Source: an uncultured Pseudomonadota bacterium (GTDB taxonomy: Bacteria > Pseudomonadota > Gammaproteobacteria > Steroidobacterales > Steroidobacteraceae). From it: a DNA stretch of 64,000 bases. The DNA is taken from the NCBI GenBank assembly GCA_903862885.1, contig CAIOZU010000035.1:62001-126000 (forward strand). The letters run 5' to 3'. Position numbers and translations under genes: made by a program. The notes beneath the pieces were generated by a model. That model made no database searches and had not been told where the DNA came from. It was given only the letters and a program-made list of their open reading frames with translations. This document shows, one piece after another, positions 16,702-55,665 of the stretch. Positions within the stretch are counted from its first letter, which is position 1, and every line of letters begins with the position of its first letter.

Positions 16702-16773
16702 ATTGTTCTCCTTTTATCGCCACACATGAACACGCTGCCATTCAATCGTATTGGCTCGAGCGCGCCAAGACGT

Positions 16774-18045: not shown

Positions 18046-18183
18046 GAAAGGCTCCGGCAGACCATCGAGCAGACCGATAGCGCCACCCTATCAGCATCTT
18101 GACGTGCCATTATTCACCTTCGACTCGCATTTTCATCGCGAGATCCAGAGCCTACTTGAGATAAGCCATACTCGATTCCGCAA

Positions 18184-18211
18184 GCGGCACCCCGTTAAAC
18201 GAGGGTGCCGC
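18184..18211. promoter_or_regulatory. Strong hairpin in a divergent gap, leader of the SDR gene
   Basis: GCGGCACCC pairs with GGGTGCCGC (9 bp), and inside it CGTT pairs with AACG, giving 13 pairs with one bulged A and a very small loop. It ends 15 nt before the AGGAG ribosome site of the SDR gene at 18237. No T-run follows on either strand, so an operator or a translation-control leader is likelier than a terminator. Confidence 0.55.
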
Positions 18212-18236
18212 AAAAGGGATTCATCAGGAGCGAACC

Positions 18237-26528: not shown

Positions 26529-27323
26529 TCAAGTGGGCATCCACTCGCCGCCGTTCGCATCGAGTGCCGCGCCGGTGACGGCAGAGGAATAATCCGACAC
26601 CATAAACAGCGCCGCCCGCGCGCACTCATCATCCGTCACCATGCGCTTTAGAGCGATGTTGGTCGAGATCGAATCAATCAGTGTCTTCTCAGGCACATTG
26701 TTCTGCTTGGACGCATAGCTCACATAGCCTTGCACAGGGATACCCCACATCCAGCCCATGCGCACCACGTTCACGCGAATATTATCGGCGCCTAATTCAA
26801 AGGCGAGATACTTAGACGCCGCATTGAGCGCACCTTTGGATGCGGCATAGCCGCCCTCACCGGTCCCGTTAGGTTTAACCGTCGCTTGCGTGCTGATATT
26901 GACAATGGCACCGCCCTTTTGCGCTTTCATGACCGGCGTCACCGCTTGGATCATCTGCATGGTTCCGATGAGGTTGGTATCAATCACATCCTTCCAGGTT
27001 TTAAGATCAGCAACGTCAGCGCGCGATGGCGTACCCCAGTTAAACGCACTGTTCACTAGCCCATCAATCCGTCCAAAGGCTTTATGCGCGGCCGCGACAA
27101 ACGCTTTGCAATCGGCTTCTTGGCGAATATCCCCAACACACTTCAGCACTTTACACGCGGGGTTGACTTCCAGAATGCGTTTCTCCGCATCATCGAGTTT
27201 TGCCTGGGTGCGCGCCCCAATAGCGAGCGCCTTGGCGCCCTCACGAGCGGCCTCGACCGCCAACTTCACACCAAGTCCCGGACCGATACCGGAAATGATC
27301 AATACTTTGTCTTTTAATAACAC
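26529..27323 (-). CDS. SDR family oxidoreductase, copy A of a duplicated cassette
   Basis: Protein of 264 residues with the unusual cofactor loop SGIGPGLG in place of TGxxxGIG, and NSAF at the NNAG position. The active site is intact: Ser in NISTQATV and Tyr-x3-Lys in GGYAASKGAL. It is strikingly similar to the SDR at 33084 (shared RMGWMWG and TDDECARAALF-type segments). It starts with GTG after GAGGAGACGACG, 10 nt past the sulfotransferase stop. The sulfotransferase-SDR order is repeated at 31894-33875. Confidence 0.87.
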   Translation of the reverse strand: MLLKDKVLIISGIGPGLGVKLAVEAAREGAKALAIGARTQAKLDDAEKRILEVNPACKVLKCVGDIRQEADCKAFVAAAHKAFGRIDGLVNSAFNWGTPSRADVADLKTWKDVIDTNLIGTMQMIQAVTPVMKAQKGGAIVNISTQATVKPNGTGEGGYAASKGALNAASKYLAFELGADNIRVNVVRMGWMWGIPVQGYVSYASKQNNVPEKTLIDSISTNIALKRMVTDDECARAALFMVSDYSSAVTGAALDANGGEWMPT

Positions 27324-27333
27324 CGTCGTCTCC

Positions 27334-28509
27334 TCATGAATGCTGGGTAGTTAAAATATGTTTTTCACGATAATTCTTAAACCGCTGTTCGAGCTCCGCT
27401 TGGGTAAAGCCCGCCTCTTCCAACGTGTACTCATGCTTGGGGCGCCCTTCACGGGGATGTGAGTCCATATAGGCGGCAATCGCCGCGTGCGCGGTCGGGG
27501 TCATCGGCAAGCCAATGCGCTCAAAGATTCGCTCCACCACACCTAAGGGCTTTGACACCGTGTCCCTGAAATCGACATCGACGAACTTCGTGGGCGACCA
27601 GCCTTTACGCATCTCCAAACAATGGTTGAGATGCTCCTGCAGCGTTTCGCACCATTGACGACCGGCCTCTCGTGCGTCCGCCGTATCGGAGCCGAGCGCC
27701 CACAGACCCTGCACCATGCTGGCGTAGGAAGGAATCGAGGTGACCGGGTCACGGTGCGTCTGCACAAAGGTCACCTCTGGCAACAGATCATTGAGCACTT
27801 CCACATAGCCTAAATGCATGGGTGTTTTTAATACCCAACGCTCGGCGTGCTGGCCGCGCTTATGCTTCTGCCACTGCAAGAATTTCATGAGCTTCACCAA
27901 ATACACATAAGCGGGTCTAAGATCCTGCGCGTGCACCCACTCGCGATAACTAGGGACACAGGCCAAAGATTCTGATGTGGTGGTCAAAAGCGTCTGATCC
28001 AACAACATGATGTCCTCGTCCGCACCCATCGCATCCCAAGGGTGAATGGCCGCTAACGCCGGAGCCGCCTGCAAGATAGCCTCCACCTCAAGCTTTGCCG
28101 CCGCGATACGGCTCGCACCCGATAGATCATCCGCGCCCGGCACCGGAAAGCGACACTCCCACCACGCTGCTGCATAAAAGCGCTTATCTGCTGCAATGAG
28201 CCGATGCAATAAGGTCGTGCCGGTGCGTGACAATCCCACAATGACGACGGTGGGTGGCAGACGCTCCTCTAGAATCTCTGGGTGGCGTTTAAACCAGTCA
28301 CAGGCCCGAAGGCGCGTCACCAAAATTCCCAGCAAGCGGGTGTGCCACAGATACACCCCCGTGCCATTGAGCTTAGCCTCAGTCCGAAGCGCTGCCGTTA
28401 ATCGGGTGAGCGGCTCCTCGATCGCTGGCTCACCAAAGTCGGAAAGACCCGCCTCCGTCTGCGCCAGCGCCATTAACTCTTTAGGATCCAAGGTCATGGG
28501 ATTACTCAT
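27334..28509 (-). CDS. PAPS-dependent sulfotransferase, copy A
   Basis: Protein of 391 residues. GLSRTGTTLLHRLI is the 5'-phosphosulfate loop and THRDPVTSIPSYAS the 3'-phosphate region. AWWECRFPVP and HPREGRPKHEYTLEEAGF are shared almost word for word with the copy at 31894. It lies 10 nt before the paired SDR and 46 nt after the KstD gene, all on the minus strand. Sulfation of a hydroxyl on a steroid or terpenoid intermediate is the natural guess; a PAPS-making operon lies at 44775-48438. Confidence 0.87.
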   Translation of the reverse strand: MSNPMTLDPKELMALAQTEAGLSDFGEPAIEEPLTRLTAALRTEAKLNGTGVYLWHTRLLGILVTRLRACDWFKRHPEILEERLPPTVVIVGLSRTGTTLLHRLIAADKRFYAAAWWECRFPVPGADDLSGASRIAAAKLEVEAILQAAPALAAIHPWDAMGADEDIMLLDQTLLTTTSESLACVPSYREWVHAQDLRPAYVYLVKLMKFLQWQKHKRGQHAERWVLKTPMHLGYVEVLNDLLPEVTFVQTHRDPVTSIPSYASMVQGLWALGSDTADAREAGRQWCETLQEHLNHCLEMRKGWSPTKFVDVDFRDTVSKPLGVVERIFERIGLPMTPTAHAAIAAYMDSHPREGRPKHEYTLEEAGFTQAELEQRFKNYREKHILTTQHS

Positions 28510-28555
28510 GGAATTGCTCTTCGTATTGGTCTTTGGATAACGATTGAGAGATCTT

Positions 28556-30265
28556 TTAGGATTGACCGCTCATGTGTTTGGCCGCTTGCCACGCAAAGGT
28601 CATTGCCGGACCGAGCGTTGAACCAGGACCCGGATAGCGCGGCAAAATGGGTGCTGCGCTGTTACCGAGCGCATACAGCCCAGCGATCTTCGTGCCATCG
28701 GCTCGCGTCACTTGCGAGTTCACATCAATCACCACACCCCCGTGCGTCCCAAAGTCGCCCGGCTCCATGCGCATGGCATAAAAGGGCGACTCGACGATCG
28801 GCGCAAGGCACGGATTCGGCTGAATGCGTGGGTCGGCGTAATAGCGATCGTACTCGGCATCACCCCGAGCGTATTCCAGATCCTTACCGGTCTTGGCATA
28901 GGCATTCATCGCGGTCACGGTCCGCTCAAGGCCCGCCGGATCAATACCCGCTTTCACCGCGAGCTCTTTAATGGAGTCTGCCTTGGTGAGAAATCCCGAC
29001 GAGTAATAACTCTTCGGCACCATCCACTCCGGTCGAAATGCGGTCGGCCACAAGGGGCCATTAAAATACGAGCGCCGTGAGCGGCCATCAAACACCATCC
29101 ACGCAGGCACCTGTGGATCGTCGTCGCGTTGCTTACCGAATAAGGCCAATTGATAGGTCAGGTAGTTCTGTGACTCATTGGCGATGCGCACACCGCGTTT
29201 CGTGACCATGATGTTGCCAGGATAAGATTTATCCATGATCGCCAGCCGCGGCACCGGGTCATCCGGGCTCTTTAGGGTGGTACACCACCACCCGCCATCC
29301 ATCAGGTGCGTCGCCGCACCCAATCCGACCGCTGCCTGGATAGCGTCACCGGTGTTCGCACCGTGCGCCGCACTCCACGCCACATTGGTCGGCTTAGGCA
29401 GATACTGATCGCGCATCGCCTGATTGTGTTCAAAGCCACCTGCCGCGAGCACTACCCCACGGCGCGTGCGTACCACGGTCTTAACCCCCGCCTGCTCGAT
29501 CACCGCACCAATGACCCGACCACTCGCATCGCTTAGCAGTTCGGTCATTTGGGTATTCAGCATCAGGGGCATCTGTCGATCGAGCATTGACCACCGCAGC
29601 CGCGCGATGCCGGCCGCTCCGCAGGCGATGCGTCGCGAGCGGCGATGGGTCAGCATCCATGGAATATCGAAGTAATGATTCGTGATCAACTTGCGCGCGC
29701 GCTGCTTCCAACCTGGCATCTGCGCCATGAGAATCTGCGCATCCACTTGCGTCATAGCGATGCGATCAAACATCCACATCATATGGTGGGTGTCGCGCAG
29801 TCGACTCTCCTCTGCGCCCAGTTCAGTGCGTAGTAACGGCGCAGGCTCGAGGGACCGATGGCCTGGTTTAGCACCGGGAAGTGTCGACCAGTAATCGGGA
29901 TAATGCGCCAAGGACTCGTACCGCACACGAGTCCGCTCATGCAAAAAGGCCAACATGCGCGGCCCTTCGCGCAGATACATTTGCTGCAGCTCTAAGGGCA
30001 CCGTCCCCGCCGGGGTCGTCCCCTGCACGTACTGCAGCGCTTCCTCATAACTGTCCTGGGCGCCGGCCGCTTTCGAGTAGTCACTGCAAGGGATCCATAT
30101 GCCGCCACCTGACGTCGCACTGGTGCCGCCATACAGCGCGGTTTTCTCGATCACTAGCACCTGCTTGAGGCCCATCTCATAGGCACACAGTGCAGCCGTT
30201 AAGCCGCCGTTACCTGAGCCCACCACCAGGACATCGACCTCCAGATCCGGATTTTGCTTAATCAC
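28556..30265 (-). CDS. 3-Ketosteroid dehydrogenase-type flavoprotein (KstD-like)
   Basis: FAD protein of 569 residues. GSGNGG at 16-21 and ALYGGTSATSGGGIWIP form the FAD site. The C-terminus carries GLYALGN and YPGPGSTLGPAMTFAWQAA, the signature of 3-ketosteroid dehydrogenases, which place a double bond in ring A (Delta-1 or Delta-4) and start ring B opening. It starts at GTG 30265 with GAGGCGAAT upstream. A ketosteroid isomerase gene is divergent 76 nt away, which supports a 3-keto-steroid substrate. It is the best KstD candidate of three related flavoproteins in the window. Confidence 0.85.
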   Translation of the reverse strand: MIKQNPDLEVDVLVVGSGNGGLTAALCAYEMGLKQVLVIEKTALYGGTSATSGGGIWIPCSDYSKAAGAQDSYEEALQYVQGTTPAGTVPLELQQMYLREGPRMLAFLHERTRVRYESLAHYPDYWSTLPGAKPGHRSLEPAPLLRTELGAEESRLRDTHHMMWMFDRIAMTQVDAQILMAQMPGWKQRARKLITNHYFDIPWMLTHRRSRRIACGAAGIARLRWSMLDRQMPLMLNTQMTELLSDASGRVIGAVIEQAGVKTVVRTRRGVVLAAGGFEHNQAMRDQYLPKPTNVAWSAAHGANTGDAIQAAVGLGAATHLMDGGWWCTTLKSPDDPVPRLAIMDKSYPGNIMVTKRGVRIANESQNYLTYQLALFGKQRDDDPQVPAWMVFDGRSRRSYFNGPLWPTAFRPEWMVPKSYYSSGFLTKADSIKELAVKAGIDPAGLERTVTAMNAYAKTGKDLEYARGDAEYDRYYADPRIQPNPCLAPIVESPFYAMRMEPGDFGTHGGVVIDVNSQVTRADGTKIAGLYALGNSAAPILPRYPGPGSTLGPAMTFAWQAAKHMSGQS

Positions 30266-30341
30266 ATTCGCCTCGCAGGAAGTTGTTCGCTATTCTTAAA
30301 CACCTGAGCATCATCACTGGGTCTAACTGAAGGAGCCTCCT

Positions 30342-30704
30342 ATGCCCACCTCTGTTGTCATGAAAGCCGCCATGCAAGCCTACATCAATCACTTCAACAG
30401 CGGCAGCGCTGAGGCCGTGGCCGATCTCTACGCCCCTGAGGCCAGCGTCGAAGACCCCGTCGGCGGACCGGTGATCTCGGGCCGTGCCGCGATCTTGGCT
30501 TTCTACCAGAAGAACATCGCCACCGGCGCCAAACTCGTACTCGATGCACCGATTCGAGGCTCGCATGGTAATTCAGCGGCGATGGCGTTCAGCGCGACCA
30601 TTGGCCCCCTGACCGTTCGCGTCATTGATGTCATGACCTTCGATGAAGCGGGAAAATTCACCAGCATGCGCGCCTACTTCGGACCTGACGACATCTTGCA
30701 GTAA
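30342..30704 (+). CDS. ksi: Delta5-3-ketosteroid isomerase
   Basis: Protein of 120 residues, close in length and layout to Comamonas KSI. Tyr14 (oxyanion), Asp38 in VEDPVGG (general base) and Asp96 in VIDVMTF (second oxyanion acid) are in register, and the ending SMRAYFG matches KSI. It moves a 5,6 double bond to 4,5 in 3-keto steroids in the cytoplasm. The ATG follows GAAGGAG at 6 nt. It is divergent from the KstD-type gene, giving the classical sequence isomerase then ring A dehydrogenase. Confidence 0.9.
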   Translation: MPTSVVMKAAMQAYINHFNSGSAEAVADLYAPEASVEDPVGGPVISGRAAILAFYQKNIATGAKLVLDAPIRGSHGNSAAMAFSATIGPLTVRVIDVMTFDEAGKFTSMRAYFGPDDILQ

Positions 30705-30747
30705 CCGACCAGCGGCTCAAAGCACGCACAGAGCACACGCTGAGTCC

Positions 30748-31626
30748 TCACCTCACGATCGCAGGATGCGGGATACGCGGCTCACCCAACATGGGCCGAT
30801 GTGAGGGCGGCTGACGACCGCCTTCATCTTGCAATCCATACTCGATCGCAAGCTCTGCGGTGATGAAGGTTTGACCTGAGCGCTTCATCAGCGTGGGATC
30901 CGCCGCAAGCGCCGCAATCACCCGGCCGTTGAGCCGCGGGGTTTCAGCCATCTTCATGAAGTCCGTGTACTGATCCGGACGATCTTGCACAGCGACTGCG
31001 GTGCGCTCGGTGATTTGCATACCCAGCCACAAGGATACCGCCGCTACCTGCGTGTCGGCTAAATCCACGCCCATATCGGCAGCCAATTTATCCACGCCCG
31101 CTTTCTGCGCACCATAGGCAGGACCGTGCATGTAACAGACGCTGCCAAAGGACGACACGAACGTAATTAAGCCACTGCGCTTAGGCACCATCAGCTGAGC
31201 CGCGTAGTACGAAGCCACGTAGGCCGAGCGCAGACCCACATCCAAAATGTCGACCATGTCGAGCGGCTTCTCCCAGAATCCACCTGGATCAATCAAATTG
31301 TCATGAATGAAGGTCGCATTATTCACAAGGACATCAAGGCCACCGGATTCGGAGGCCACCTGCGCAAACAGAGCCGCCACCTGTTCATCTTTGCTGTGAT
31401 CACAGGCGACCGCAATGGCATGCCCACCGGCGGCGCGAATTTCATTCACTGTCTCGTGAATGGTGCCGGGTAACGCGTGTTGCTTTGCGCGACCTAAGCT
31501 ATGCGTATTCGAGCGACCCGTGACGTACACGGTCATACCGGAGGCAGCGAGACCGAGTGCAATGCCCTTGCCTGCCCCACGACTCGCGCCCGTTACCACC
31601 GCCACCTTTGGTTTCGATTTTTTCAT
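30748..31626 (-). CDS. SDR of the DHRS1-like group
   Basis: Protein of 292 residues, longer than usual SDRs. TGASRGAGKGIA, CDHSKDEQVAALF, NNATF and FVSSFGSVCYMHGPAYGAQKAGVDKLAADM follow the layout of DHRS1, whose members reduce steroid and retinoid carbonyls. Tyr-x3-Lys is intact. A loop after the active site (SLWLGMQITE) and a C-terminal tail complete the match. AGGGGTTGCA precedes the ATG. It converges on the KSI gene and is divergent from the second sulfotransferase. Confidence 0.86.
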   Translation of the reverse strand: MKKSKPKVAVVTGASRGAGKGIALGLAASGMTVYVTGRSNTHSLGRAKQHALPGTIHETVNEIRAAGGHAIAVACDHSKDEQVAALFAQVASESGGLDVLVNNATFIHDNLIDPGGFWEKPLDMVDILDVGLRSAYVASYYAAQLMVPKRSGLITFVSSFGSVCYMHGPAYGAQKAGVDKLAADMGVDLADTQVAAVSLWLGMQITERTAVAVQDRPDQYTDFMKMAETPRLNGRVIAALAADPTLMKRSGQTFITAELAIEYGLQDEGGRQPPSHRPMLGEPRIPHPAIVR

Positions 31627-31893
31627 TGCAACCCCTATTGCCTACCTGATATCTACGGGTTGGCCGCTCAGTCGGGCATCACCCGTCCGCCGATCGGTCA
31701 CCGATGAAGCTCATCTTGCCACGATAGGGGTGGGCTGAGAAATTCATTACCGGCGGCCTAGGTCGATGGTAGGCTTCAAGCGCCGGGAGTAGCCACCCTC
31801 ACCGGTCAGATCGATGCGCCGGCCCCATACCCAGACCTCGGGGGAAGCGGCTGGCCCGATCTATATATAAGTGGCCCGAAAAGTGAATGAGCC
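31627..31893. other. Divergent promoter region with TATATATAAG element
   Basis: The 267-nt gap between the DHRS1-like SDR and sulfotransferase copy B. TATATATAAG (about 31862-31871), some 25 nt before the sulfotransferase ATG, is a likely -10 region. It is flanked by two copies of GGCCCGA. No confident -35 is seen. Confidence 0.35.
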
Positions 31894-33078
31894 ATGAACC
31901 ACCACGTCACATTGGAATCAGAACCTCTGTTGGCCGCTGCCCGAGAGGCCACTGGCCTCTCTCGGCTCGATGGGCCTGATTTAATGGAGCCGCTCACGCG
32001 TCTCACCGCAGCGCTTCGATCGGAAGCCCATCTCAACGCCGCCGGCCAGCAAATGTGGGCGGAGCGACTGCACGGCATCTTGGTCACTCGTCTGCGCGCT
32101 TGCGACTGGTTTGAGCGACATCCAGAGATTTTGGAAGAGCAGTTACCACCTCCGGTGGTGATCCTAGGCCTCGGTCGTACGGGCACCACCCTGTTACAGC
32201 GCCTACTCGCCGCGGACGAACGCTTTTACTCAGCCGCTTGGTGGGAATGTCGCTTTCCGGTGCCTGCCCCAGATGACATGGCGGGCGATCAGCGTAAGGC
32301 ACTCGCCCAAGCGGAAGTCGCTGCCATCTTGGCCTACCGACCAGAACTCGCCGCGATCCATCCGTGGGATGCGCTCGCGGCGGATGAGGACATCTTGCTG
32401 CTCGATCAAACCCTGCTGTCGACAACCGCTGAGTGCATGGCCTTTATTCCCAGCTACCGCGATTGGTTAATCCAGCAAGACTTGAGCCCCGCGTACCGCT
32501 ATCTCGAACGATTTCTCAAATTTATTCAGTGGCAAAAGCGACAGCGGGGCATACAGGGCAGTCGCTGGGTGCTGAAGACCCCCATGCACTTAGGTTATAT
32601 CGATCACTTACTCTCGGTGTGGCCCGAAGCCACCTTCGTGCAAACCCATCGAGACCCACTCGCCACCATCCCCTCCTTTACCAGCTTCGTTTACAGCTTA
32701 TGGGCCGGTGTCAGCGATACCGCAAGCCCCCAAGAAGCGGGTCAACAAATCAGTGGCTACTTTGAGCGCATGCTCAATCGTTGCTTAACTTTACGCGAGC
32801 ACCTAGCGCCCGAAAAGTTTGTGGATGTCGACTTTAGGGACACGGTCTCACAGCCCATGCAGGTCATCGAGCGCATCTATAAAGCCATTGACCTGCCCCT
32901 CAATGCACTTGCTCGCGCCCAAATCATGGGCTACCTTGCTACTCATCCGCGCGAGGGGCGACCGACTCACCAGTACACGCTGGAGCAGTTCGGACTGACC
33001 TCGCTTGATCTCGAACACCGTTTTGCGCGATACCGCGCCCGTCATGTTGCCGCCTTTCAAGATATATCACTGGAGTAA
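31894..33078 (+). CDS. PAPS-dependent sulfotransferase, copy B
   Basis: Protein of 394 residues with GLGRTGTTLLQRLL (5'-phosphosulfate loop) and THRDPLATIPSFTS (3'-phosphate site). It matches the copy at 27334 over its length, including AWWECRFPVP, ILLLDQTLLSTTAE and THPREGRPTHQYTLEQFGL. The paired SDR starts 6 nt after the stop. The ribosome site before the ATG is weak (AGTGA). Acceptor unknown; a hydroxylated ring compound is likely by context. Confidence 0.86.
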   Translation: MNHHVTLESEPLLAAAREATGLSRLDGPDLMEPLTRLTAALRSEAHLNAAGQQMWAERLHGILVTRLRACDWFERHPEILEEQLPPPVVILGLGRTGTTLLQRLLAADERFYSAAWWECRFPVPAPDDMAGDQRKALAQAEVAAILAYRPELAAIHPWDALAADEDILLLDQTLLSTTAECMAFIPSYRDWLIQQDLSPAYRYLERFLKFIQWQKRQRGIQGSRWVLKTPMHLGYIDHLLSVWPEATFVQTHRDPLATIPSFTSFVYSLWAGVSDTASPQEAGQQISGYFERMLNRCLTLREHLAPEKFVDVDFRDTVSQPMQVIERIYKAIDLPLNALARAQIMGYLATHPREGRPTHQYTLEQFGLTSLDLEHRFARYRARHVAAFQDISLE

Positions 33079-33083
33079 AACGC

Positions 33084-33875
33084 ATGTTACTGAAAGATAA
33101 AGTCATCATCGTCTCAGGCATTGGTCCTGGCTTAGGATACAAGCTTGCCGTGGAAGCGGCCCGTGAAGGCGCGCGCGCCATCACCCTCACCGCGCGCACC
33201 GCCTCAAAGCTCGATGAGGTAGAAAAACAGATTCAAGCGGTCGCTCCCAACTGCAAAGTCTTGAAAGTGCAAACCGATATTCAAGACAAAGCGCAGTGCC
33301 AGCGCGCCGCCGATGAAACGATGAAGGCGTTTGGACGCATCGATGGGCTTGCCAACAGCGGCTACATTCACGGTGGTTTTCTGCCGATCGAGACCTCTAA
33401 CCTCGACGAGTGGAATGACGTCTTTGCCACCAATGTCAAAGGCTCCACCCAGATGACGCTCGCCTGCGTCCCGCACATGAAAGCCAATGGTGGCGGCGCG
33501 GTGGTCATGATCAACTCGATGGGCATGATGAAGCCCTACGCGGGCGGTGGGCTGTATGCCGCGACCAAGGGTGCACTGCTTATCACCACCAAATATCTGG
33601 CCGTGGAATTAGGCCCAGACAACATCCGTGTCAACACCGCGCGCATGGGTTGGATGTGGGGCGAGCCGGTAAAACAAAGCATCAAGTGGATGGCCGAGGC
33701 GCAAAAACTCACCGAGCAACAGGTCATTGATGGCATCTCAGCCAACATCCCGCTGCGCCGCATGATCACGGACGATGAGTGCGCACGCACCGCGCTATTT
33801 TTGCTGTCGGACTACGCCAGTGGCGTGACCGGCGCGATCATCGACTGCAATGGTGGCGAAAGTGTGACCCCATGA
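33084..33875 (+). CDS. SDR family oxidoreductase, copy B of a duplicated cassette
   Basis: Protein of 263 residues with the same odd cofactor loop SGIGPGLG as copy A at 26529. Its active site is intact, with Ser in INSMGMM and Tyr-x3-Lys in LYAATKGAL. It shares ARMGWMWGEPV and MITDDECARTALFLLSDYASGVTGA with copy A. GGAG of the ribosome site overlaps the end of the sulfotransferase gene. The stop overlaps the VOC start by 4 nt, so sulfotransferase-SDR-VOC is one operon. Confidence 0.87.
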   Translation: MLLKDKVIIVSGIGPGLGYKLAVEAAREGARAITLTARTASKLDEVEKQIQAVAPNCKVLKVQTDIQDKAQCQRAADETMKAFGRIDGLANSGYIHGGFLPIETSNLDEWNDVFATNVKGSTQMTLACVPHMKANGGGAVVMINSMGMMKPYAGGGLYAATKGALLITTKYLAVELGPDNIRVNTARMGWMWGEPVKQSIKWMAEAQKLTEQQVIDGISANIPLRRMITDDECARTALFLLSDYASGVTGAIIDCNGGESVTP

Positions 33876-35270: not shown

Positions 35271-37019
35271 ATGGCCATCCCGAATAGACACCCTGACAAC
35301 CCAGTGCGCGATGCACTGACTCCAGAGCGCAGCGTGAGCCCGCTGACCGACGCTTTTAACGCGTGGCAGCAAAACACCCAAGGTCCGGAAGTGGCGAAGC
35401 GCGGTGAGCGACAGACCCCCTTTAAAACCCAGGCCCTGCACTGGCCTGTCCATCCGCTGTACACACCGCTCGATCTCGAAGCCGCCGGCTTTGATTATCA
35501 ACGCGATGTCGGCTTTCCCGGCGAGTATCCCTACACGCGCAGCGTCAATCCAAACGGCAATCGATCTGCGCTTTGGACCATGGCGCAAGTCACCGGCTTT
35601 GGTCGTGGCACCGACTGGGCGAAGCGCGCGCGCTTTATGTTGGACCAAGGGCTGCAAGGCCTCATCCTCGAACACGATCTCGCCACCACCAACGGCTACG
35701 ACTCAGATGACCCGTTAGCCGAAGGCGAAGTGGGTCGCGCAGGCCTTGCCATCGATTCGCTCGAGGATCTCGAGCGCGCCTTTGATCTGCCTTTCGACCG
35801 CCTCAAATACTTGATGTCAGTGTGCAACGCGCCGCAGCCGGTGAACTTAGCGATGATTATCGCCGCCTTAGAGGCCAAAGGCGTTGATCCTAAACAGTTC
35901 GTGCTGCACATCGTCAATGGTATTTTGATCGAGTACACCTGTGTGGGTCGTTACATCTATCCACCGAAGCATGGGCTACGCATCGCCACCGACTGCTTTG
36001 AGTACATGATTGAGCACCACCCCAACTGGGCACCGATCTCCATCATTTCAGCGCAGCTGTATGCCGCTCGTGCCAATCCTGTACAGGAACTGGCCTTCTC
36101 ACTGAGCATTGCGTTGCAGCACATCGATGCGCTGTTAGAGCGTGGCCACTCGATCGACAAGGTCGCACCGTATTTCCATTTTGTGACTGGCATTGACATG
36201 GACTTTTTTGAGGGCATCTGCAAGCTGCGCGCCTTTCGAAAGATCTGGGCGCGCTTAATGCGTGAGCGCTACAAGGCGACCCGACCAGAGGCCATGAAAG
36301 TGCGCGTGATGAGCTCGCCCGGCACCATGTCACTGACTCTGCAGCAGCCGCTAAACAATATCTCGCGACTGGCCATCATGGCGACCGCCTGCGCACTCGG
36401 CGGCGTTGGCGAGACCATGACTACCCCGCTGCACGATGAGGCGCACGCACTGCCCGCCGATGAAGCGATTCGCGTCGGCGCCGCCATTCAGCACATCGTT
36501 GCCCATGAAACGGGCGTCGCCGACACCATTGACCCCTTAGCCGGCTCCTACTACGTCGAGACCCTCACTCGACAGATAGAGGATGCGGTCATGACGGAGA
36601 TCGACAAGATCATGGCGATGGGTGGGGCGCTCGCCGCCATTGAACGCGGCTACTTCCAGCGTGAACTCGCTCGCGAACAATGCGATCGGAATCGCGCCTT
36701 AGAAGACGGCAGCCGAAAGTTAGTCGGCGTGAATCATCTGGTGCATGCCGAAGAGCGCCGTGAGATCCCCATCTTTAAACTGGCCGACGAGGTCGAGGCC
36801 GAACAGATTGAGCGCCTACAAGAACTGCGCAAGCGCCGCGACCAAAACGCGGTGGATGTCGCACTCGCCGCCGTTCGCGACGCTGCCCGCTCAGGCACTA
36901 ATCTGGTACCACCGTGCCTGGTGGCGGTGAAGGCCTACGCGACCCATGGTGAGATTTGCAACGCCATGCGTGATGTATTTGGCGTGCACCACCCGGACGC
37001 ACAAACGGCCGGCGTGTAA
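35271..37019 (+). CDS. B12-dependent acyl-CoA mutase, large (substrate-binding) subunit, atypical
   Basis: Protein of 582 residues, the TIM-barrel part of a methylmalonyl-CoA-mutase-type enzyme without its own B12 domain, as in isobutyryl-CoA and 2-hydroxyisobutyryl-CoA mutases. Family anchors are NGYDSDDPLAEGEVG, RYIYPPKHGLR, DEAHALP and IDPLAGSYYVE. By gap-free spacing, Tyr89 and Arg207 of methylmalonyl-CoA mutase correspond to Val107 and Val225, and His244 to Gln262. It therefore cannot bind methylmalonyl-CoA in the known way. It rearranges some other acyl-CoA, perhaps a branched fragment from ring or side-chain breakdown. First gene of a four-gene operon; GAGGAG upstream. Confidence 0.86.
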   Translation: MAIPNRHPDNPVRDALTPERSVSPLTDAFNAWQQNTQGPEVAKRGERQTPFKTQALHWPVHPLYTPLDLEAAGFDYQRDVGFPGEYPYTRSVNPNGNRSALWTMAQVTGFGRGTDWAKRARFMLDQGLQGLILEHDLATTNGYDSDDPLAEGEVGRAGLAIDSLEDLERAFDLPFDRLKYLMSVCNAPQPVNLAMIIAALEAKGVDPKQFVLHIVNGILIEYTCVGRYIYPPKHGLRIATDCFEYMIEHHPNWAPISIISAQLYAARANPVQELAFSLSIALQHIDALLERGHSIDKVAPYFHFVTGIDMDFFEGICKLRAFRKIWARLMRERYKATRPEAMKVRVMSSPGTMSLTLQQPLNNISRLAIMATACALGGVGETMTTPLHDEAHALPADEAIRVGAAIQHIVAHETGVADTIDPLAGSYYVETLTRQIEDAVMTEIDKIMAMGGALAAIERGYFQRELAREQCDRNRALEDGSRKLVGVNHLVHAEERREIPIFKLADEVEAEQIERLQELRKRRDQNAVDVALAAVRDAARSGTNLVPPCLVAVKAYATHGEICNAMRDVFGVHHPDAQTAGV

Positions 37020-37050
37020 ATCGCACACGCTAAGCGCTCACGGAGAAAAA

Positions 37051-37713
37051 ATGAAAAGTATTTGTCTACTAAGCCGCCGCGCAGACTTATCGCCGCAACA
37101 GTTTCGTGACTATTACGAAAATACCCACGCAGTCTTAGGCGCCAAGCACTTCCCCTTCACCCGCTATGCACGTAATCACTTACACGCCACTCGCGAGCAA
37201 ACTGCTAATTTTAATTGCTACAGCGAGTTTTGGAGTGATGACATGCCCAGCATCGTCACGATGATGAGTGGCCCCATTGGCGCGCTGTTCGCTGAGGACG
37301 AGGCACGCTTCATGGATCGAAGTCTGATCCGCCCCGCGATGGCAACCGAGCATCGATTGGCAGGCCCCAGCACACCGCCGCTGAGCGATCGCAAGTACGC
37401 ACAGTTTTTTACCCGTGCCGCGAACATCAGTGACGCCGAGTGGCAAGACACGTTGCAGACGTACGGCGCCCAGTGGTTGAGCGCCGCAAAGGTGCCGGTC
37501 ACAGGACTTGTCTTAGATGTGATCTCGTCATGGCCTGGTGTGATCTTCCCATTTGACGCGGTCTTACAAGCGAGTATCGGCGGTACCTCAACACAGATCA
37601 GCGCACCCCCACTACCCGCCGCGTTGGTCTGCGTCCATTCTGCTTGGATGGACACGACAGAGACGCCCCCCGAGACCTTGCTCAGCAACCTACCCGCCGG
37701 GACGCGCACATGA
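37051..37713 (+). CDS. EthD-domain (dimeric alpha/beta-barrel) protein
   Basis: Protein of 220 residues, probably two ferredoxin-like halves. The first starts SICLLSRRADLSPQQFRDYYENTHA, the EthD opening, and the second begins near DRKYAQFFTRAANISDAEWQ. EthD proteins were first found beside cytochrome P450 genes for ether breakdown; their role is unclear, and related folds are monooxygenases or lyases. MKSICLL at 37051 follows CGGAGAAAAA. It sits between the two mutase subunit genes and overlaps the small-subunit gene by 4 nt, a placement I do not know from characterised mutase operons. Confidence 0.75.
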   Translation: MKSICLLSRRADLSPQQFRDYYENTHAVLGAKHFPFTRYARNHLHATREQTANFNCYSEFWSDDMPSIVTMMSGPIGALFAEDEARFMDRSLIRPAMATEHRLAGPSTPPLSDRKYAQFFTRAANISDAEWQDTLQTYGAQWLSAAKVPVTGLVLDVISSWPGVIFPFDAVLQASIGGTSTQISAPPLPAALVCVHSAWMDTTETPPETLLSNLPAGTRT

Positions 37714-38144
37714 CCGCCTTTGCCAACCGACGATTGCGGGTGCTTCTCGCCAAACTCGGCATGGACACGCACACGATCGGCGTGACGGTCATCGCGCATG
37801 CGTTGCGAGATGCCGGCTTTGAAGTGATCTTCACCGGCCTCAAACAAACCGCGGAAATGGTGGCGAATACGGCAGTGCAAGAGGACGTGGATGTGGTGGG
37901 CGTGAGCTCTCTATCCGCCGCCCATATGAAACACCTGCCTAAGCTCGCTGAGTTCCTCAGACAAAAAGGTGCCGGTGACAAGCTCCTGATCGCCGGCGGT
38001 GTCGTGCCACTCGAGGATATCCCGCAACTAGAGCGCGCCGGTGTGCAGAAAATATTCACCATGGGCACCGAAACCAAAACCATCGTCGACTACCTGCAGA
38101 CGTGGTGGGCCGCCAAACTCGCCGCGGAGCAATCCGGCGGATGA
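37710..38144 (+). CDS. B12-dependent acyl-CoA mutase, small (cobalamin-binding) subunit
   Basis: Protein of 144 residues with the base-off cobalamin motif D-x-H-x-x-G as Asp19-Thr-His21-Thr-Ile-Gly24, followed by VGVSSLSAAHM and LIAGGVVP, as in IcmB, HcmB and the C-terminal domain of MutB. His21 should be the lower cobalt ligand. The start overlaps the EthD stop and the stop overlaps the MeaB start, both by 4 nt (ATGA). A longer open frame upstream is inside the EthD gene. It forms the working enzyme with the large subunit at 35271. Confidence 0.9.
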   Translation: MTAFANRRLRVLLAKLGMDTHTIGVTVIAHALRDAGFEVIFTGLKQTAEMVANTAVQEDVDVVGVSSLSAAHMKHLPKLAEFLRQKGAGDKLLIAGGVVPLEDIPQLERAGVQKIFTMGTETKTIVDYLQTWWAAKLAAEQSGG

Positions 38145-43450: not shown

Positions 43451-43481
43451 CGTGGGCGCATCAGACCGCTGATGCGCCACG
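43451..43481. terminator. Hairpin between two convergent MFS genes
   Basis: CGTG-G-GCGCATCAG pairs with CTGATGCGC-CACG (13 bp with one bulged G, loop ACCG). It overlaps the stop codon of the minus-strand MFS gene. No T-run on either side; it probably blocks read-through in both directions. Confidence 0.55.
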
Positions 43482-44774: not shown

Positions 44775-45596
44775 TCAGCGCAGCATGGATACCCAGTCAC
44801 GTGTCCCATCTGCGTATACCAAGAAGTAGGGATTGAGAATATTTTCTTTGGCGTTGTAGCGAAGCGCGCTACCGTCCGCCTGGACGACCGTACCACCCGC
44901 CGCAGACACCACCGCGTGTGCCGCCGCAGTGTCCCACTCGGAGGTCAATCCAAGTCTTGGGTACACATCGGCTGAGCCTTCCGCGACCATGCAGAGTTTC
45001 AGCGCACTGCCCACCGGTATCAGTTCATAAGGGCCGATCTTATCGAGGAAGGCGTCCAACGAATCCCCGCGATGGGATCGACTACCGACCACACGCACCG
45101 GTGTCGACGTGGTGGATTGGGCATGAATTGCAGTCACACCCTGACTATCTTGGCGGTGGGCACCCTGCCCAACCACGCCCCAGTACATCGTATCGCGAGC
45201 CGGCACATAGACAACGCCCAGCACCGCTTCCTGATTGTCGATCAGCGCAATATTGACTGTGAATTCGCCGTTGCGTGACAGAAACTCCTTGGTACCATCC
45301 AAAGGATCCACCAGCCAGTAACGGCTCCACTGACGCCTGGTCTCATAGGGAATCTCGACTGATTCTTCTGATAACACCGGTAGCGCTGGTGACAAGGCTT
45401 CAAGTCCCGCAACAATCGCCCGATGCGCGCGTAGATCCGCTTGAGTCAATGGCGAGTCATCTGACTTTGTGGTTTCACCAAAATCCCCCGACCCATAGAC
45501 ATCCATGATCTCCGCACCCGCGCGACGAGCAATCGCCACGGCGGCGGTTGCCAGCCGACTTAGCTCAGCCAACGCATCTGCTGTCACAGAACTCAC
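44775..45596 (-). CDS. cysQ: 3'(2'),5'-Bisphosphate nucleotidase CysQ
   Basis: Protein of 273 residues of the inositol-monophosphatase fold. LPVLSEES and [13 protein letters not shown] are the metal-binding motifs, with [12 protein letters not shown]-type sequence ([12 protein letters not shown]) near the C-terminus. It dephosphorylates PAP, the by-product of sulfotransferases and PAPS reductase, which otherwise inhibits them. It starts at GTG, overlapping the cysNC stop by 4 nt. The combined gene order cysD-cysNC-cysQ makes and recycles the sulfotransferase cofactor. Confidence 0.92.
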
Positions 45597-47500
45597 AGCC
45601 GGCCTAAGTAACCGCCATCACGCAGATAACTGATGATGCGATCAGCCGCCGCATCCGGTGCGGTCAGCGCGGTGTCGATGCGAATCTCTGCTGACTCAGG
45701 CGCCTCATAGGCCGAGTCAATACCGGTGAAGTTCTTAAGCTCTCCGCTGCGGGCTTTCTTATACAGGCCCTTCACATCACGCTTTTCGGCTTCCGCTAAG
45801 GTGGTGTCAATAAACACCTCAATGAACTCGCCCTCCTCCACCAGGGCGCGCGCCGCGCGCCGCTCTGCCCGGAAGGGGGAAATAAAAGACACCAGCACGA
45901 TCATGCCGGCATCGATCATGAGCTTAGACACTTCCGCCACACGACGAATGTTCTCCACCCGATCTTGCTCTGTGAAACCCAAATCTTTATTAAGACCATG
46001 ACGCACATTGTCGCCATCGAGCAGGTAGGTGTGACGCCCTAAGGCTGCCAGCTTTCGCTCCACCACATTAGCAATGGTGCTCTTACCCGCGCCGGATAAT
46101 CCTGTGAGCCACAGAATGACGGGCTTTTGCCCCTTTAAGATGCCACGAGCGGTCTTATTGATATCGAGCGCTTGCCAGTGGATGTTCTGCGACCGACGCA
46201 ACTCAAACTCGAGCAAACCGGCACCAACCGTATTATTGGTCAGTCGGTCGATCAAAATAAATCCGCCCAAGTCGCGGTTTTTAGCATAGGGCTCAAAGGT
46301 GATGGGCTGATCTAGCGCCAACTCACACACACCGATGTCATTCAGCTCCAACCGTTCCGCGGCCAATTGCTCTAAGGTGTTGACGTTCACCTTATGCTTG
46401 ATGGGCATCACCGTCGCAGTCACGGTGCGCGCGCCAATTTTCATCAAGTACGAGCGGCCTTGCAGCAACGCATCATCGTGCATCCATACAATCGTCGCCT
46501 GGAACTGATCGGCCACCACCGGTGGATCATCCACGGCCGCAATCACATCGCCACGACTCACATCCACCTCATCGGTGAGTGTTAGCGTCACCGATTGACC
46601 GGCCACCGCGACCGGCAGATCGCCGTCAGCCGTCACAATGCGCGCCACCTGACTGGTACGTCCCGAGGGCAATACCCGAATCTTATCGCCCGGTCTCACC
46701 GTGCCACTGACAATCTGACCTGCAAAACCACGGAAGTCGAGATTTGGACGGTTCACCCACTGCACGACGTACCGGAAAGGCGAATTAGCGCCTAGGTCCG
46801 TCACATCGACGCTCTCTAAGTGCTCCATCAGCACAGGGCCTTTGTACCAAGGCATGTTGGGTCCATGCTCAATGATGTTATCGCCGTACGCTGCTGACAT
46901 CGGGATCGCCGTGATCTCATCAAAGCCGATCTGCGCCGCGAACGCTTTATAGTCCGCGAGAATCGTATTAAAGACCTCTTGCGAGTAACCGACCAGATCG
47001 ATCTTATTGATCGCGAGCACCACTCGGCGGATACCGAGCAGCGACACCAAGTAACTGTGCCGGCGTGTTTGCGTGAGCAAGCCTTTACGGGCATCGATCA
47101 ACACCACGGCCAGATCAGCCGTCGAGGCACCGGTCACCATGTTGCGGGTGTACTGCTCGTGACCCGGTGTATCTGCAACGATGAATTTACGCCGCTCAGT
47201 CGAGAAAAAGCGATAGGCCACATCAATGGTGATGCCTTGTTCACGCTCGGCGGCCAAACCATCGACCAACAGCGCAAAATCGATCTCAGCACCGCGCGTG
47301 CCGTCTTTCTTTGAATCCGCCTCAAGCGCGATCATTTGGTCTTCGAAAATCATCTTAGATTCGTACAGTAATCGCCCAATCAGGGTCGACTTACCATCAT
47401 CCACTGAACCGCAAGTAATAAACCGCAGCAAACTCTTATGCTGATGCACCTTTAGGTACGCTTCAATATCTGAGCCAATCAGGTCACTCTGGTGAGCCAT
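45593..47500 (-). CDS. cysNC: Bifunctional ATP sulfurylase large subunit/APS kinase CysNC
   Basis: Fusion of 635 residues. The N-terminal GTPase (CysN) has GSVDDGKST near residue 32, [12 protein letters not shown] and NKIDLV, followed by EF-Tu-like domains 2 and 3. The C-terminal APS kinase begins near residue 450 with GLSGAGKST and DGDNVRHGL. CysN with CysD makes APS from sulfate and ATP; the kinase half makes PAPS. The ATG shares one base with the cysD stop (TGATG). PAPS is the donor for the three sulfotransferases in the window. Confidence 0.94.
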
Positions 47501-53235: not shown

Positions 53236-53304
53236 CTTCACATCGTACCCGAGCATTTGCTATTTTTGAAAGAGTTTATACACCGGCACGCGCGTGAGGC
53301 TCCT

Positions 53305-54873
53305 TTGAACGCATCTATTCCTCAGACCTACCCCGCCTTGGTCGCCCGCGCAGCCCAGTTGTTCGGACAGGCGCCGGCTATCGTCACCGACTCCACCCGC
53401 TGTTCCTTTACCGAACTGGAAGCACGGGTGTTCCAGGTAGCCCGTGCGTTGCTCGCCAACGGCGTGCGCCATGGCGATCGAATCGCCTTGTGGGCACCGA
53501 ACTCACCGGAGTGGATTTACGCCGCTTTAGGCGCCACGAGCATTGGCGCCATCTTGGTGCCGATGAACACGCGATTGAAAGGACAAGAAGCCGCTTACAT
53601 ATTAACGAGCAGTGGCGCCTGCCACCTGTTCACCGTGCACGACTTCCTAGGCACCTGCTATCCGGATCTGATTGCCGCGGCTGATTTACCCTTACTCAAA
53701 AAAATCACGCTACTCACGGGTACGCACCCGCGCGCTCAATCTTGGTCTGACTTTTTAGCGTCCAGTGACTTAAGCGCACCGGCCGAGTGTACAGCCGCGA
53801 TCGCGAAGGTCGGACCGGATGACATCTCCGACATCATGTACACCTCAGGCACAACCGGAAAGCCTAAAGGCGTCATGGCGTCGCAGCAGCAGAGCATCCG
53901 CGTATTTTGGACGTGGAGTGAATGGGTCGGCCTTGAGCAAGCGGATCACTATCTGATCGCCAATCCCTTCTTTCATACCTTTGGCTACAAATCCGGTTGG
54001 CTCGCCTGTCTATTGCGTGGCGCAACCATTTTCCCCATGCCGGTGTTCGATGCCGCTGAGGCATTACGCCTGATCGCACACCACCGCATCACGGTGCTAC
54101 CAGGGCCGCCGACCATCTTCCATGCCCTGTTAAGTCATGAGAAGCGCGCGACCAGCGACCTTTCAAGCCTGCGCCTCGGTATCACCGGTGCCGCCTCAGT
54201 GCCTGCGGCACTCATTGCGCGCATGCGCACGGAACTCGGTTTTAAAACCGTCTTAACCGCCTATGGTTTAACCGAGTCGTGCGGGGTACTCACCATCTGC
54301 CCGCATGGCACTTCCGATGAGAAAGTCGCTGGCACCTGTGGCGTCGCCATTCCAGGTATTGAGTTGCGCTTGGTCGATGATAGCGGACAGATCGCAGAGC
54401 CTGGCCTGCCGGGTGAGGTGCTCGCCCGCGGCTACAACGTCATGAAGGGCTATTTTCAGGATCCGACAGCAACCGCCCTTGCCATTGATGCAGACGGTTG
54501 GTTACACACGGGCGATATCGGTGTGATGGATGAGCAAGGTTTTCTAAAGATCACTGATCGAAAGAAAGACATGTTCATCGTCGGCGGATTCAATTGCTAC
54601 CCTGCTGAAATCGAAAACCTCATGAGCGCACATCCGGCCATTGCCCAAGTGGCGGTGGTCGGATCAGCCGATGAGCGTTTGGGCGAAGTGGGTCATGCTT
54701 TCGTGGTCTTAAGACCCGGTGCGAGCGTGGATGAGAGCACACTCACCCAGTGGTGTCGCACCAACATGGCTAACTACAAAGTGCCCCGTCGAATTGAGTT
54801 TGTCGACAGCCTGCCACTCAACGCGGCAGGTAAAGTACAGAAGTTTGCGCTACGCGAAGGACACGCTCGCTGA
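53305..54873 (+). CDS. Acyl-CoA ligase, FadD3-like
   Basis: Adenylate-forming enzyme of 522 residues. TSGTTGKPKG is the P-loop, YGLTESCG the A5 motif, LHTGDIG and DRKKDMFIVGGFNCYPAEIE the hinge region, and a C-terminal GKVQK carries the catalytic Lys. The GGFNCYPAEIE hinge and length fit FadD3, which loads CoA on the C/D-ring propanoate (HIP) after HsaAB-HsaCD action. TTG 53305 is preceded by TGAGG at 5-6 nt; an earlier TTG at 53257 has none. Its 3' end overlaps the hydratase gene by 24 nt. The HIP substrate is inferred from the hsaAB neighbourhood. Confidence 0.83.
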   Translation: MNASIPQTYPALVARAAQLFGQAPAIVTDSTRCSFTELEARVFQVARALLANGVRHGDRIALWAPNSPEWIYAALGATSIGAILVPMNTRLKGQEAAYILTSSGACHLFTVHDFLGTCYPDLIAAADLPLLKKITLLTGTHPRAQSWSDFLASSDLSAPAECTAAIAKVGPDDISDIMYTSGTTGKPKGVMASQQQSIRVFWTWSEWVGLEQADHYLIANPFFHTFGYKSGWLACLLRGATIFPMPVFDAAEALRLIAHHRITVLPGPPTIFHALLSHEKRATSDLSSLRLGITGAASVPAALIARMRTELGFKTVLTAYGLTESCGVLTICPHGTSDEKVAGTCGVAIPGIELRLVDDSGQIAEPGLPGEVLARGYNVMKGYFQDPTATALAIDADGWLHTGDIGVMDEQGFLKITDRKKDMFIVGGFNCYPAEIENLMSAHPAIAQVAVVGSADERLGEVGHAFVVLRPGASVDESTLTQWCRTNMANYKVPRRIEFVDSLPLNAAGKVQKFALREGHAR

Positions 54874-55665
54874 GCCGACACCGGATAACTCTAAGCGAAA
54901 GCGATCGCCCGGCCGCGCGGTTTCTAAGGGCACCAATGAGCCGGACAAAATGACATCGCCCGCATCTAGGGTGACACCGTACTGACCTAAGGTATTGGCA
55001 AGCCAAGCCACCGCCGCTAGCGGAGAGCCTTGCACCGCCGATCCCTGACCCTCAGACAAAAATACGTCGTTCTTAAATACGCGAACGGTCAGGGCTGCCA
55101 AATCGTGCGCCCGCGGATCCACCCGTGCGGCACCCAACACAAATACACCGCACGAGGCATTGTCAGCAATCGTGTCCACAATGCGAATATCCCACTTCTC
55201 AATGCGTGAATCGACGATCTCAAAGCAGGGCGCGATGGTATCGGTCGCCGCCAACACATCCGCCGCCGTCACCCCAGGTCCTTGCAACGGATGCTTTAAA
55301 ATCAAGGCAATCTCCGCCTCCGCTCTCGGCTGAATCAGGCCATCCGCAATGCGAACGCAACCGCCATCCTCAATCCACATGCGATCCGTTAAGAACCCAA
55401 AGTCAGGCTGATGAACGCCTAACATGTCTTGTACGGCTTTACTCGTGACCCCAATTTTCTTACCGACCACTTTTTCGCCGTTGGCCAAACGATATTCCAA
55501 GATACCTAAGGAGATCGCATAGGCATCGTCAATGGTCAGATCCAATGATCGATCACGCAGCGGAGGCACCGGGCGCTGCTCACGCAGCGCCTGATAAAGC
55601 TCTTTCGAAAGCGCTTGCTGGATCGCACGACGCGGGGCAGTGGTGGATAATGGAGTCGATGACAT
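54850..55665 (-). CDS. hsaE: 2-Hydroxydienoate hydratase, TesE/HsaE-like
   Basis: Protein of 271 residues of the 2-keto-4-pentenoate hydratase (MhpD/TesE) family. VVGKKIGVTSKAVQDMLGVHQPDFG, PRAEAEIALIL with the two metal-binding Glu, FEIVDSRI and NASCGVFVLG are diagnostic. In steroid catabolism it hydrates 2-hydroxyhexa-2,4-dienoate, the ring A fragment, before aldol cleavage. It overlaps the 3' end of the ligase gene by 24 nt (convergent). AAGGA lies 11 nt before the ATG. It is divergent from hsaAB across a 380-nt gap. Confidence 0.85.
   Translation of the reverse strand: MSSTPLSTTAPRRAIQQALSKELYQALREQRPVPPLRDRSLDLTIDDAYAISLGILEYRLANGEKVVGKKIGVTSKAVQDMLGVHQPDFGFLTDRMWIEDGGCVRIADGLIQPRAEAEIALILKHPLQGPGVTAADVLAATDTIAPCFEIVDSRIEKWDIRIVDTIADNASCGVFVLGAARVDPRAHDLAALTVRVFKNDVFLSEGQGSAVQGSPLAAVAWLANTLGQYGVTLDAGDVILSGSLVPLETARPGDRFRLELSGVGSASVSFA

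What the first reader, a model, noticed from the sequence alone, without database searches (positions are those of the whole stretch)
26529..33875. Sulfotransferase-SDR cassette present twice in opposite orientation
27334-28509 plus 26529-27323 (minus strand) and 31894-33078 plus 33084-33875 (plus strand) hold the same gene pair in the same order. They share long identical stretches such as AWWECRFPVP, HPREGRP, the odd SGIGPGLG loop, RMGWMWG and TDDECAR. Between them lie KstD, KSI and a DHRS1-like SDR. Divergent duplication followed by specialisation, for example for two hydroxyl positions or epimers, is likely. The fixed pairing implies that dehydrogenation/reduction and sulfation are consecutive.
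Basis: partly seen in the sequence, partly recalled or inferred. Interest (0 to 1): 0.72.

Follow-up and report, generated by a model that had tools for sequence, protein, structure and literature searches.

The report
Twice-present steroid sulfation gene pair
In a bacterium that appears to degrade steroids, two old copies of a gene pair (a sulfate-adding enzyme plus an oxidoreductase) sit beside steroid-breakdown genes and near genes that make the sulfate donor, which suggests an untested sulfation step in bacterial steroid metabolism.

Summary
In detail: two sulfotransferase-SDR pairs at the stated coordinates, 60% (ST) and 55% (SDR) identical. In both gene trees copy A groups with SZAS MAGs, copy B with a same-family genome, and these groups are sisters. 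Duplication inside the genus is rejected (AU p 0.015 ST, 0.001 SDR); lateral arrival of one copy is not excluded. The pairing is not fixed: of 80 related ST loci, 28 have the SDR within about 6 kb, 19 directly downstream, 55 have DUF1214 directly upstream and 46 have PAPS-synthesis genes. The window holds the genome's only CysDNC locus (44775-48462 with CysQ), a KstD-like gene and FadD3. ST-A models as a PAPS sulfotransferase, nearest folds STF9 and STF1 of mycobacteria. Best reading: a PAPS-dependent module that sulfonates a hydroxyl of a steroid or early intermediate, with the SDR setting that hydroxyl. Acceptor, position, order and purpose are untested. Nearest known system by function: the Bacteroides BT_0416 cholesterol-sulfonation cluster; SDR, DUF1214 and catabolic setting differ. 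New variant of a known kind.

The parts
26529..27323 (-). SDR-A, short-chain dehydrogenase of NCBIfam PRK07890 type; Y159/K163 invariant
   Evidence: ORF, NF005909 295 bits vs cut-off 258, alignment of 22
27334..28509 (-). ST-A, Sulfotransfer_3 family PAPS-type sulfotransferase
   Evidence: PF13469 E 6.9e-33; AlphaFold2 pLDDT 93, best folds STF9 and STF1
28556..30265 (-). KstD-like 3-ketosteroid delta1-dehydrogenase, upstream of ST-A on the same strand
   Evidence: best NCBIfam hit 3-ketosteroid-delta-1-dehydrogenase, below equivalog cut-off (516 vs 789); orthologue in same place in SZAS MAGs
30342..30704 (+). SnoaL/KSI-like small protein
   Evidence: PF12680; SZAS orthologue 74-76%
30748..31626 (-).
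   Evidence: 58% relative beside KstD and ST in L074
31894..33078 (+). ST-B, Sulfotransfer_3 family sulfotransferase
   Evidence: PF13469 E 6.7e-41; 60% to ST-A
33084..33875 (+). SDR-B, PRK07890-type SDR
   Evidence: NF005909 289 bits vs 258; 55% to SDR-A
44775..45596 (-). CysQ, PAP phosphatase
   Evidence: TIGR01331 289 vs 228.8
45593..47500 (-). CysNC, ATP sulfurylase large subunit fused to APS kinase (makes PAPS)
   Evidence: NF004035 1059 vs 715; only strong APS kinase match in the genome
47500..48462 (-). CysD, ATP sulfurylase small subunit
   Evidence: NF009214 573 vs 413
53257..54873 (+). FadD3-family acyl-CoA ligase (steroid C/D-ring degradation marker; role recalled)
   Evidence: NF005801 725 vs 657
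54850..55665 (-). 2-oxopent-4-enoate hydratase-like (HsaE-like)
   Evidence: TIGR03220 358.6, below cut-off 408.8

Best explanation
The two pairs are two old copies of a PAPS-dependent sulfonation module inside a 9,10-seco steroid-catabolic island. CysD/CysNC supply PAPS (shown: genes present; inferred: supply to these STs). The SDR, probably working as a reductase, sets or exposes one hydroxyl on a steroid or early ring-degradation intermediate, and the ST transfers sulfonate from PAPS to it; CysQ clears the by-product PAP (inferred). I think the sulfate ester most likely keeps an amphipathic intermediate soluble and inside the cell, or protects one hydroxyl while the rings are opened, and that copies A and B serve two different hydroxyl-bearing intermediates. 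Purpose and A/B division are guesses (about 0.35 for this purpose, given the module).
For: Fold and PAPS site: ST-A model pLDDT 93.1; top solved folds STF9 Z 39.9 and STF1 Z 39.8, then other sulfotransferases at 13.7 and below. R95, G97, T99, E165, R253 and S261 are invariant in 30 of 30 aligned STs. PAPS supply: PAPS-synthesis genes within about 6 kb of 46 of 80 related STs, in three arrangements: CysC+Sat (Halieaceae and others), CysD plus an APS-kinase match inside a roughly 640-690 aa ORF, read as CysNC (Cupriavidus, Pseudomonas laurentiana), and CysC without Sat between ST and SDR (L081 Nevskia). ST and SDR go together: of 369 genomes of the class, own genome included, 3 have the ST and all 3 have the SDR, 5 have the SDR in all (Fisher 1.2e-6); tree distances correlate (32 pairs, rho 0.64, 0 of 9999 permutations as high). 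Steroid link: KshA over cut-off in 3 of 3 own-family genomes with an A/B-clade ST, own genome included, against 2 of 53 others (p 3.6e-4), and in 22 of 24 other ST genomes; in two SZAS genomes a KshA_C match lies 0.8 and 3.2 kb from the SDR-ST-KstD-KSI row. Papers: Cupriavidus necator grew on testosterone (PMC4810484, passages seen); Halieaceae and Spongiibacteraceae isolates grew on cholesterol (PMC5790920, passages seen).
Against: No substrate is shown. CysH on contig C4 lacks the Cys-Cys motif of APS reductases (motif recalled; sequence), so it is probably a PAPS reductase and the window's CysDNC also serves sulfur assimilation: its position 10.9 kb away need not be meant for the STs. Of the 80 ST loci, 29 have PAPS genes but no SDR nearby, and 14 (10 of them labelled Myxococcota or Deltaproteobacteria, three with short flanks) have neither SDR, PAPS genes nor DUF1214. 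DUF1214, the commonest neighbour, is not in the window and is unexplained. G028 and G058 have more distant STs and no KshA; with them counted, p is 0.0034. Two ST genomes outside the family, G470 and G476, have no KshA match. Shared species history inflates the tree correlation.
Confidence: 0.6

Rival explanations
1. The sulfate is a leaving group: the SDR makes an alcohol of the right configuration, the ST sulfonates it, and elimination removes the oxygen, giving an alkene that enters ring degradation.
For: Enzymes in which sulfonation leads to elimination (their chemistry is recalled) appear among the fold neighbours: curacin and olefin-synthase ST domains (4gbm, 4gox) and retinol dehydratase (1x8k). 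SnoaL-like genes lie nearby.
Against: A shared fold shows no reaction; the same lists are full of ordinary conjugating sulfotransferases. I saw no lyase partner kept with the pair, but did not search for one systematically.
Confidence: 0.2
2. Sulfonation is outward detoxification or export of inhibitory steroid intermediates, not a catabolic step.
For: Two MFS transporter genes, 42212-43441 and 43461-44645, lie next to the CysQ gene; a detoxifying role of sulfonation is described in PMC10932419 (abstract in listing and passages seen).
Against: The ST sits between KstD and SDR in one same-strand row in the window and in SZAS, an odd place for export only.
Confidence: 0.2
3. The two cassettes are not duplicates made in this lineage but two related cassettes, one of which came by lateral transfer (A from a SZAS-like donor).
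For: Patchy occurrence: an ST at E <= 1e-60 in 2 of 15 genus genomes and 7 of 98 relatives searched, own genome included; A is closest to SZAS MAGs of untold kinship, B to same-family genomes.
Against: G000 and G004 share both pairs; base composition of the window is even (0.55-0.61 GC in 4 kb steps).
Confidence: 0.4
4. The STs are ordinary lipid or exopolysaccharide sulfotransferases that merely lie in a steroid island.
For: 14 of 80 related loci lack the SDR, PAPS and DUF1214 neighbours.
Against: Co-occurrence with the SDR and with KshA and position next to KstD.
Confidence: 0.12

Closest known systems
Bacteroides thetaiotaomicron BT_0411-BT_0416 cholesterol-sulfonation cluster (PMC9417993; abstract and passages seen)
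   Same: A PAPS-dependent sulfotransferase next to putative PAPS-synthesis genes; the acceptor is the sterol 3-hydroxyl; shown by expression, in vitro assay and deletion there.
   Different: Gut anaerobe; the terms short-chain dehydrogenase and oxidoreductase have no occurrence in that paper's main text. Here the ST is paired with a PRK07890 SDR or DUF1214, lies in an aerobic steroid-catabolic island, and occurs twice. BT_0416's sequence was not compared here.
M. tuberculosis STF1 (Rv3529c, named so in PMC8882603, one passage seen) and the neighbouring Rv3530c oxidoreductase
   Same: Closest solved fold together with STF9 (2zq5, Z 39.8, 30% identity); Rv3529c and Rv3530c stand next to each other in a table of cholesterol-catabolic genes (PMC6429209, passages seen).
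   Different: About 30% identity only; Rv3530c's sequence was not at hand, so whether it is of the PRK07890 type was not tested; no acceptor of STF1 was given in the passages seen.
M. avium STF9 (2z6v)
   Same: Same fold, Z 39.9 over 367 residues.
   Different: 24% identity; no gene neighbourhood seen here.
PRK07890 SDR subfamily; 3ucx (M. smegmatis, source organism recalled)
   Same: Both SDRs score above the NCBIfam cut-off; 3ucx is the only PDB sequence at E <= 1e-30 for SDR-A.
   Different: The family model names no reaction.

Membership tests
Sulfotransfer_3 (PF13469), PAPS-dependent sulfotransferases | Profile match over the curated cut-off | tested here: met
   115.2 and 141.4 bits vs 27
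Sulfotransfer_3 (PF13469), PAPS-dependent sulfotransferases | PAPS-site residues: 5'-loop RTGTT, 3'-site Arg and Ser (roles recalled) | tested here: met
   R95, G97, T99, R253, S261 invariant in 30 of 30
Sulfotransfer_3 (PF13469), PAPS-dependent sulfotransferases | Transfer of sulfonate from PAPS | not testable with these tools
   needs an assay
Classical SDR, PRK07890 subfamily (NF005909) | Score over the curated cut-off | tested here: met
   295.1 and 288.8 vs 258
Classical SDR, PRK07890 subfamily (NF005909) | Catalytic Tyr and Lys (YxxxK), glycine-rich loop | tested here: met
   Y159, K163, G12, G14, G16, G18 invariant in 22 of 22; the column that I take for the catalytic Ser (position recalled) holds Thr in SDR-A and Ser in SDR-B (read)
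9,10-seco steroid catabolic cluster | KstD and KshA present | tested here: met
   KshA_C over cut-off at G000:C35:148644 and C44:165; KstD-like gene in window, best NCBIfam name KstD but below equivalog cut-off
9,10-seco steroid catabolic cluster | Growth on a steroid | not testable with these tools
   genome only, no culture
BT_0416-type sterol-sulfonation cluster | ST adjacent to PAPS-synthesis genes | tested here: inconclusive
   In the window CysDNC-CysQ begins 10.9 kb from SDR-B; a PAPS gene within about 6 kb in 46 of 80 related loci
BT_0416-type sterol-sulfonation cluster | Sterol as acceptor | not testable with these tools
   needs an assay

The most novel reading that the evidence does not exclude
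Sulfonation is a true catabolic step in a widespread variant of aerobic steroid degradation: an SDR-ST pair with its own PAPS supply installs a sulfate ester that is later eliminated to remove a ring oxygen, copies A and B act at two positions, and the mycobacterial STF1 gene in the cholesterol region belongs to the same scheme.
Probability: 0.13. Interest if true: 0.82.

Novelty: new variant of a known kind. Interest (0 to 1): 0.55.

Why it matters
If right, bacterial steroid breakdown includes a sulfate-ester stage that the two genomic surveys of steroid degraders looked at here do not mention: the word sulfotransferase has no occurrence in the main texts of PMC4810484 and PMC5790920. It would give a function to a recurring ST-SDR-DUF1214-PAPS neighbourhood in steroid-degrading groups such as Cupriavidus and Halieaceae, and a testable idea for STF1 in the mycobacterial cholesterol region.

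Tried and rejected
Recent local inverted duplication: rejected by the AU tests and by near-saturated synonymous sites between A and B.

Independent acquisition of STs and SDRs: not supported; topologies match.

Decay of one copy: ST-B in G004 has one in-frame TAG, but its dN/dS with the window copy is 0.061; a young mutation or an assembly error is as likely as decay. SDR-B is intact (dN/dS 0.029). The SDR-B value was wrong (frame slip of mine) and is replaced.

A dedicated PAPS supply in this genome: not shown, because CysH looks like a PAPS reductase.

Same pair in Mycolicibacterium madagascariense: an ST is followed by an SDR, but that SDR scores 152 against the PRK07890 cut-off of 258, so it is not the same pair.

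A Sphingobium and a Novosphingobium plasmid SDR of this subfamily (the second just under its cut-off, 256.5 vs 258) have no annotated ST beside them in the stretches read; Sphingomonas paeninsulae has ST then SDR adjacent.

Ten paper searches: no title or abstract start that I saw in the listings describes an ST-SDR module in steroid degradation; DUF1214 with sulfotransferase gave no paper. The library holds open-licence PMC papers only, so this is no proof that nothing is in print.
Full report
What is there. Two gene pairs, each a Sulfotransfer_3 sulfotransferase followed by an SDR, lie at 28509-26529 (minus) and 31894-33875 (plus). ST-A and ST-B are 60% identical over 389 aa without gaps, SDR-A and SDR-B 55% over 260 aa. 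Both SDRs score above the NCBIfam cut-off for PRK07890, a subfamily whose model names no reaction. In the own genome (2.79 Mb, 73 contigs, 99.3% complete) no other SDR match comes near them (next 35% or less), and four further STs stand at 29-33%, three of them on the same 192 kb contig.

History. In both trees the window's A gene and its G004 orthologue group with two SZAS MAGs, the B gene and its G004 orthologue with one same-family genome (G029 for ST, G028 for SDR), and the two groups are sisters (7-row clade 100/100 for ST, 96/83 for SDR). Holding A and B together as a duplication inside the genus is rejected (p-AU 0.0153 for ST, 0.00105 for SDR). So one ancestral pair gave rise to both, before the genus; whether by duplication or by transfer between relatives is open, since an ST at E <= 1e-60 is in only 2 of the 15 genus genomes searched. 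Long branches are present in both trees, the SDR clade support is moderate, and the A group of the ST tree has SH-aLRT 79.

Selection. Between G000 and G004, dN/dS is 0.040 (ST-A, 293 codons), 0.061 (ST-B), 0.025 (SDR-A), 0.029 (SDR-B), 0.025 (SDR-C) and 0.024 (KstD, 494 codons), by a Nei-Gojobori script of mine with high dS values (0.85-1.8), so only the order of magnitude counts. G004's ST-B has one in-frame TAG.

Neighbours. Over the 80 loci (63 with at least 5 kb on both sides): DUF1214 directly upstream on the same strand in 55; a PAPS-synthesis gene (CysC, Sat or CysD) within about 6 kb in 46 (40 of the 63); a PRK07890-type SDR in 28, directly downstream in 19; a KstD relative in 5, one of them G004. 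The 19 SDR-adjacent loci are in Cupriavidus, Paraburkholderia, Nevskia and a Nevskiaceae MAG, Sinimarinibacterium, Aestuariicella, one Halioglobus MAG and the SZAS MAGs. In most Halieaceae loci the ST is preceded by DUF1214 and followed by CysC and Sat, in Spongiibacter with a gap of about 1 kb, and in the genomes searched the SDR lies elsewhere. In Nevskia L081 the order is DUF1214-ST-CysC-SDR. The loci were picked by similarity to the ST, and related strains (nine Cupriavidus, for example) are counted singly, so independent cases are fewer than the counts. 14 of 80 loci show none of these neighbours.

Co-occurrence. In 369 genomes of the class, own genome included, 3 have the ST (E <= 1e-70) and all 3 have the SDR (E <= 1e-50; 5 in all), Fisher 1.2e-6 (I take the two samples to be the same; only the best candidates of each genome were scored). 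One of the two genomes with SDR only, G434, has a 36% ST next to that SDR, below the cut. Of 29 ST-bearing genomes searched, 28 have the SDR at E <= 1e-55; G464 and G029 are the same genome by their coordinates, so 27 of 28 distinct ones. G058 lacks it, and G029's falls outside the clade. ST and SDR tree distances correlate over 32 matched pairs (rho 0.64; 0 of 9999 permutations reach it), which shared ancestry of the genomes also produces.

Steroid setting. The window holds a KstD-like gene next to ST-A, a FadD3-family ligase above cut-off and an HsaE-like hydratase below cut-off. KshA_C over cut-off is in the own genome on the same contig (C35:148644), 0.8 kb from another ST, and in 5 of 56 own-family genomes given to the search: the 3 with an A/B-clade ST and 2 without (p 3.6e-4); counting the distant STs of G028 and G058, which lack KshA, p is 0.0034. 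Of 24 other ST genomes 22 have it (not G470, G476); these were chosen for having the ST, and the base rate of their groups is not known. In SZAS genome G463 the island reads TonB, PQQ protein, FAD dehydrogenase, glyoxalase-like, SnoaL, KshA, then 3.2 kb on SDR-A, ST-A, KstD, KSI; G462 has the same order with KshA 0.8 kb from the SDR (KshA placed from the coordinates). Cupriavidus necator grew on testosterone (PMC4810484, passages seen), and Halieaceae and Spongiibacteraceae isolates grew on cholesterol (PMC5790920, passages seen).

Mechanism. ST-A models with mean pLDDT 93.1 (28 sequences); closest folds are STF9 and STF1, Z 39.9 and 39.8, far above the next (13.7), and nearly all of the 50 rows shown are sulfotransferases. 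PAPS-site residues are invariant in 30 of 30 relatives. E165 aligns with a Glu of STF9 that I recall as the proposed base. The SDRs keep Y159 and K163; an invariant Arg after the second strand (R38) suggests NADP(H) by a rule I recall, hence a reductase, but this is weak. The window's CysD, CysNC and CysQ (44775-48462) include the genome's only strong APS kinase match; CysH sits on another contig. I infer ketone to alcohol by the SDR, alcohol to sulfate ester by the ST, PAP cleared by CysQ. Nothing here shows the acceptor, the position, or the order of the two steps.

Comparison. The nearest described system by function is the Bacteroides BT_0411-BT_0416 cluster, in which BT_0416 makes cholesterol sulfate with PAPS, the neighbouring genes being putative PAPS-synthesis genes (PMC9417993, abstract and passages seen). 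By fold the nearest are STF9 and STF1; STF1 is called Rv3529c in PMC8882603 (one passage seen), and Rv3529c is listed beside Rv3530c, possible oxidoreductase, among cholesterol-catabolic genes in PMC6429209 (passages seen). Whether Rv3530c is of the PRK07890 type I could not test.

Verdict. The finding is larger than the duplicate: a recurring ST neighbourhood (DUF1214, PAPS genes, PRK07890 SDR) in groups that degrade steroids, for which the papers seen here give no function.

Noticed in passing
window 14942-18995: A third Sulfotransfer_3 gene (14942-16270, minus) lies beside a metallo-beta-lactamase with an alkyl-sulfatase dimerisation match (16774-18045) and an SDR (18237-18995): a possible sulfate-ester hydrolase next to a sulfotransferase.
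   Followed up: partly
L187 5-1635 (G000:C35:166005-167635): A relative of that third ST (67%) lies directly next to a relative (50%) of the SDR at 18237, so a second ST-SDR neighbourhood of other subfamilies is also present twice on this contig.
   Followed up: no
L029 585-2643 and L113 1507-3600: In G028 and in G434 (another family) STs of one distant lineage lie divergently next to a PRK07890-like SDR: a separate association of the two families.
   Followed up: partly
G000:C21:4382-6533: In the own genome a DUF1214 match (23 bits, below cut-off 25) lies upstream of another ST on the same strand.
   Followed up: no
L065, L107 and L103: In two Myxococcota MAGs the ST follows methylmalonyl-CoA mutase and MeaB genes 57-66% identical to those of the window (35271-39109); in L103 only the mutase was matched.
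   Followed up: no
L027 1897-1899: Single in-frame TAG in the ST-B gene of G004; the frame is otherwise open.
   Followed up: partly
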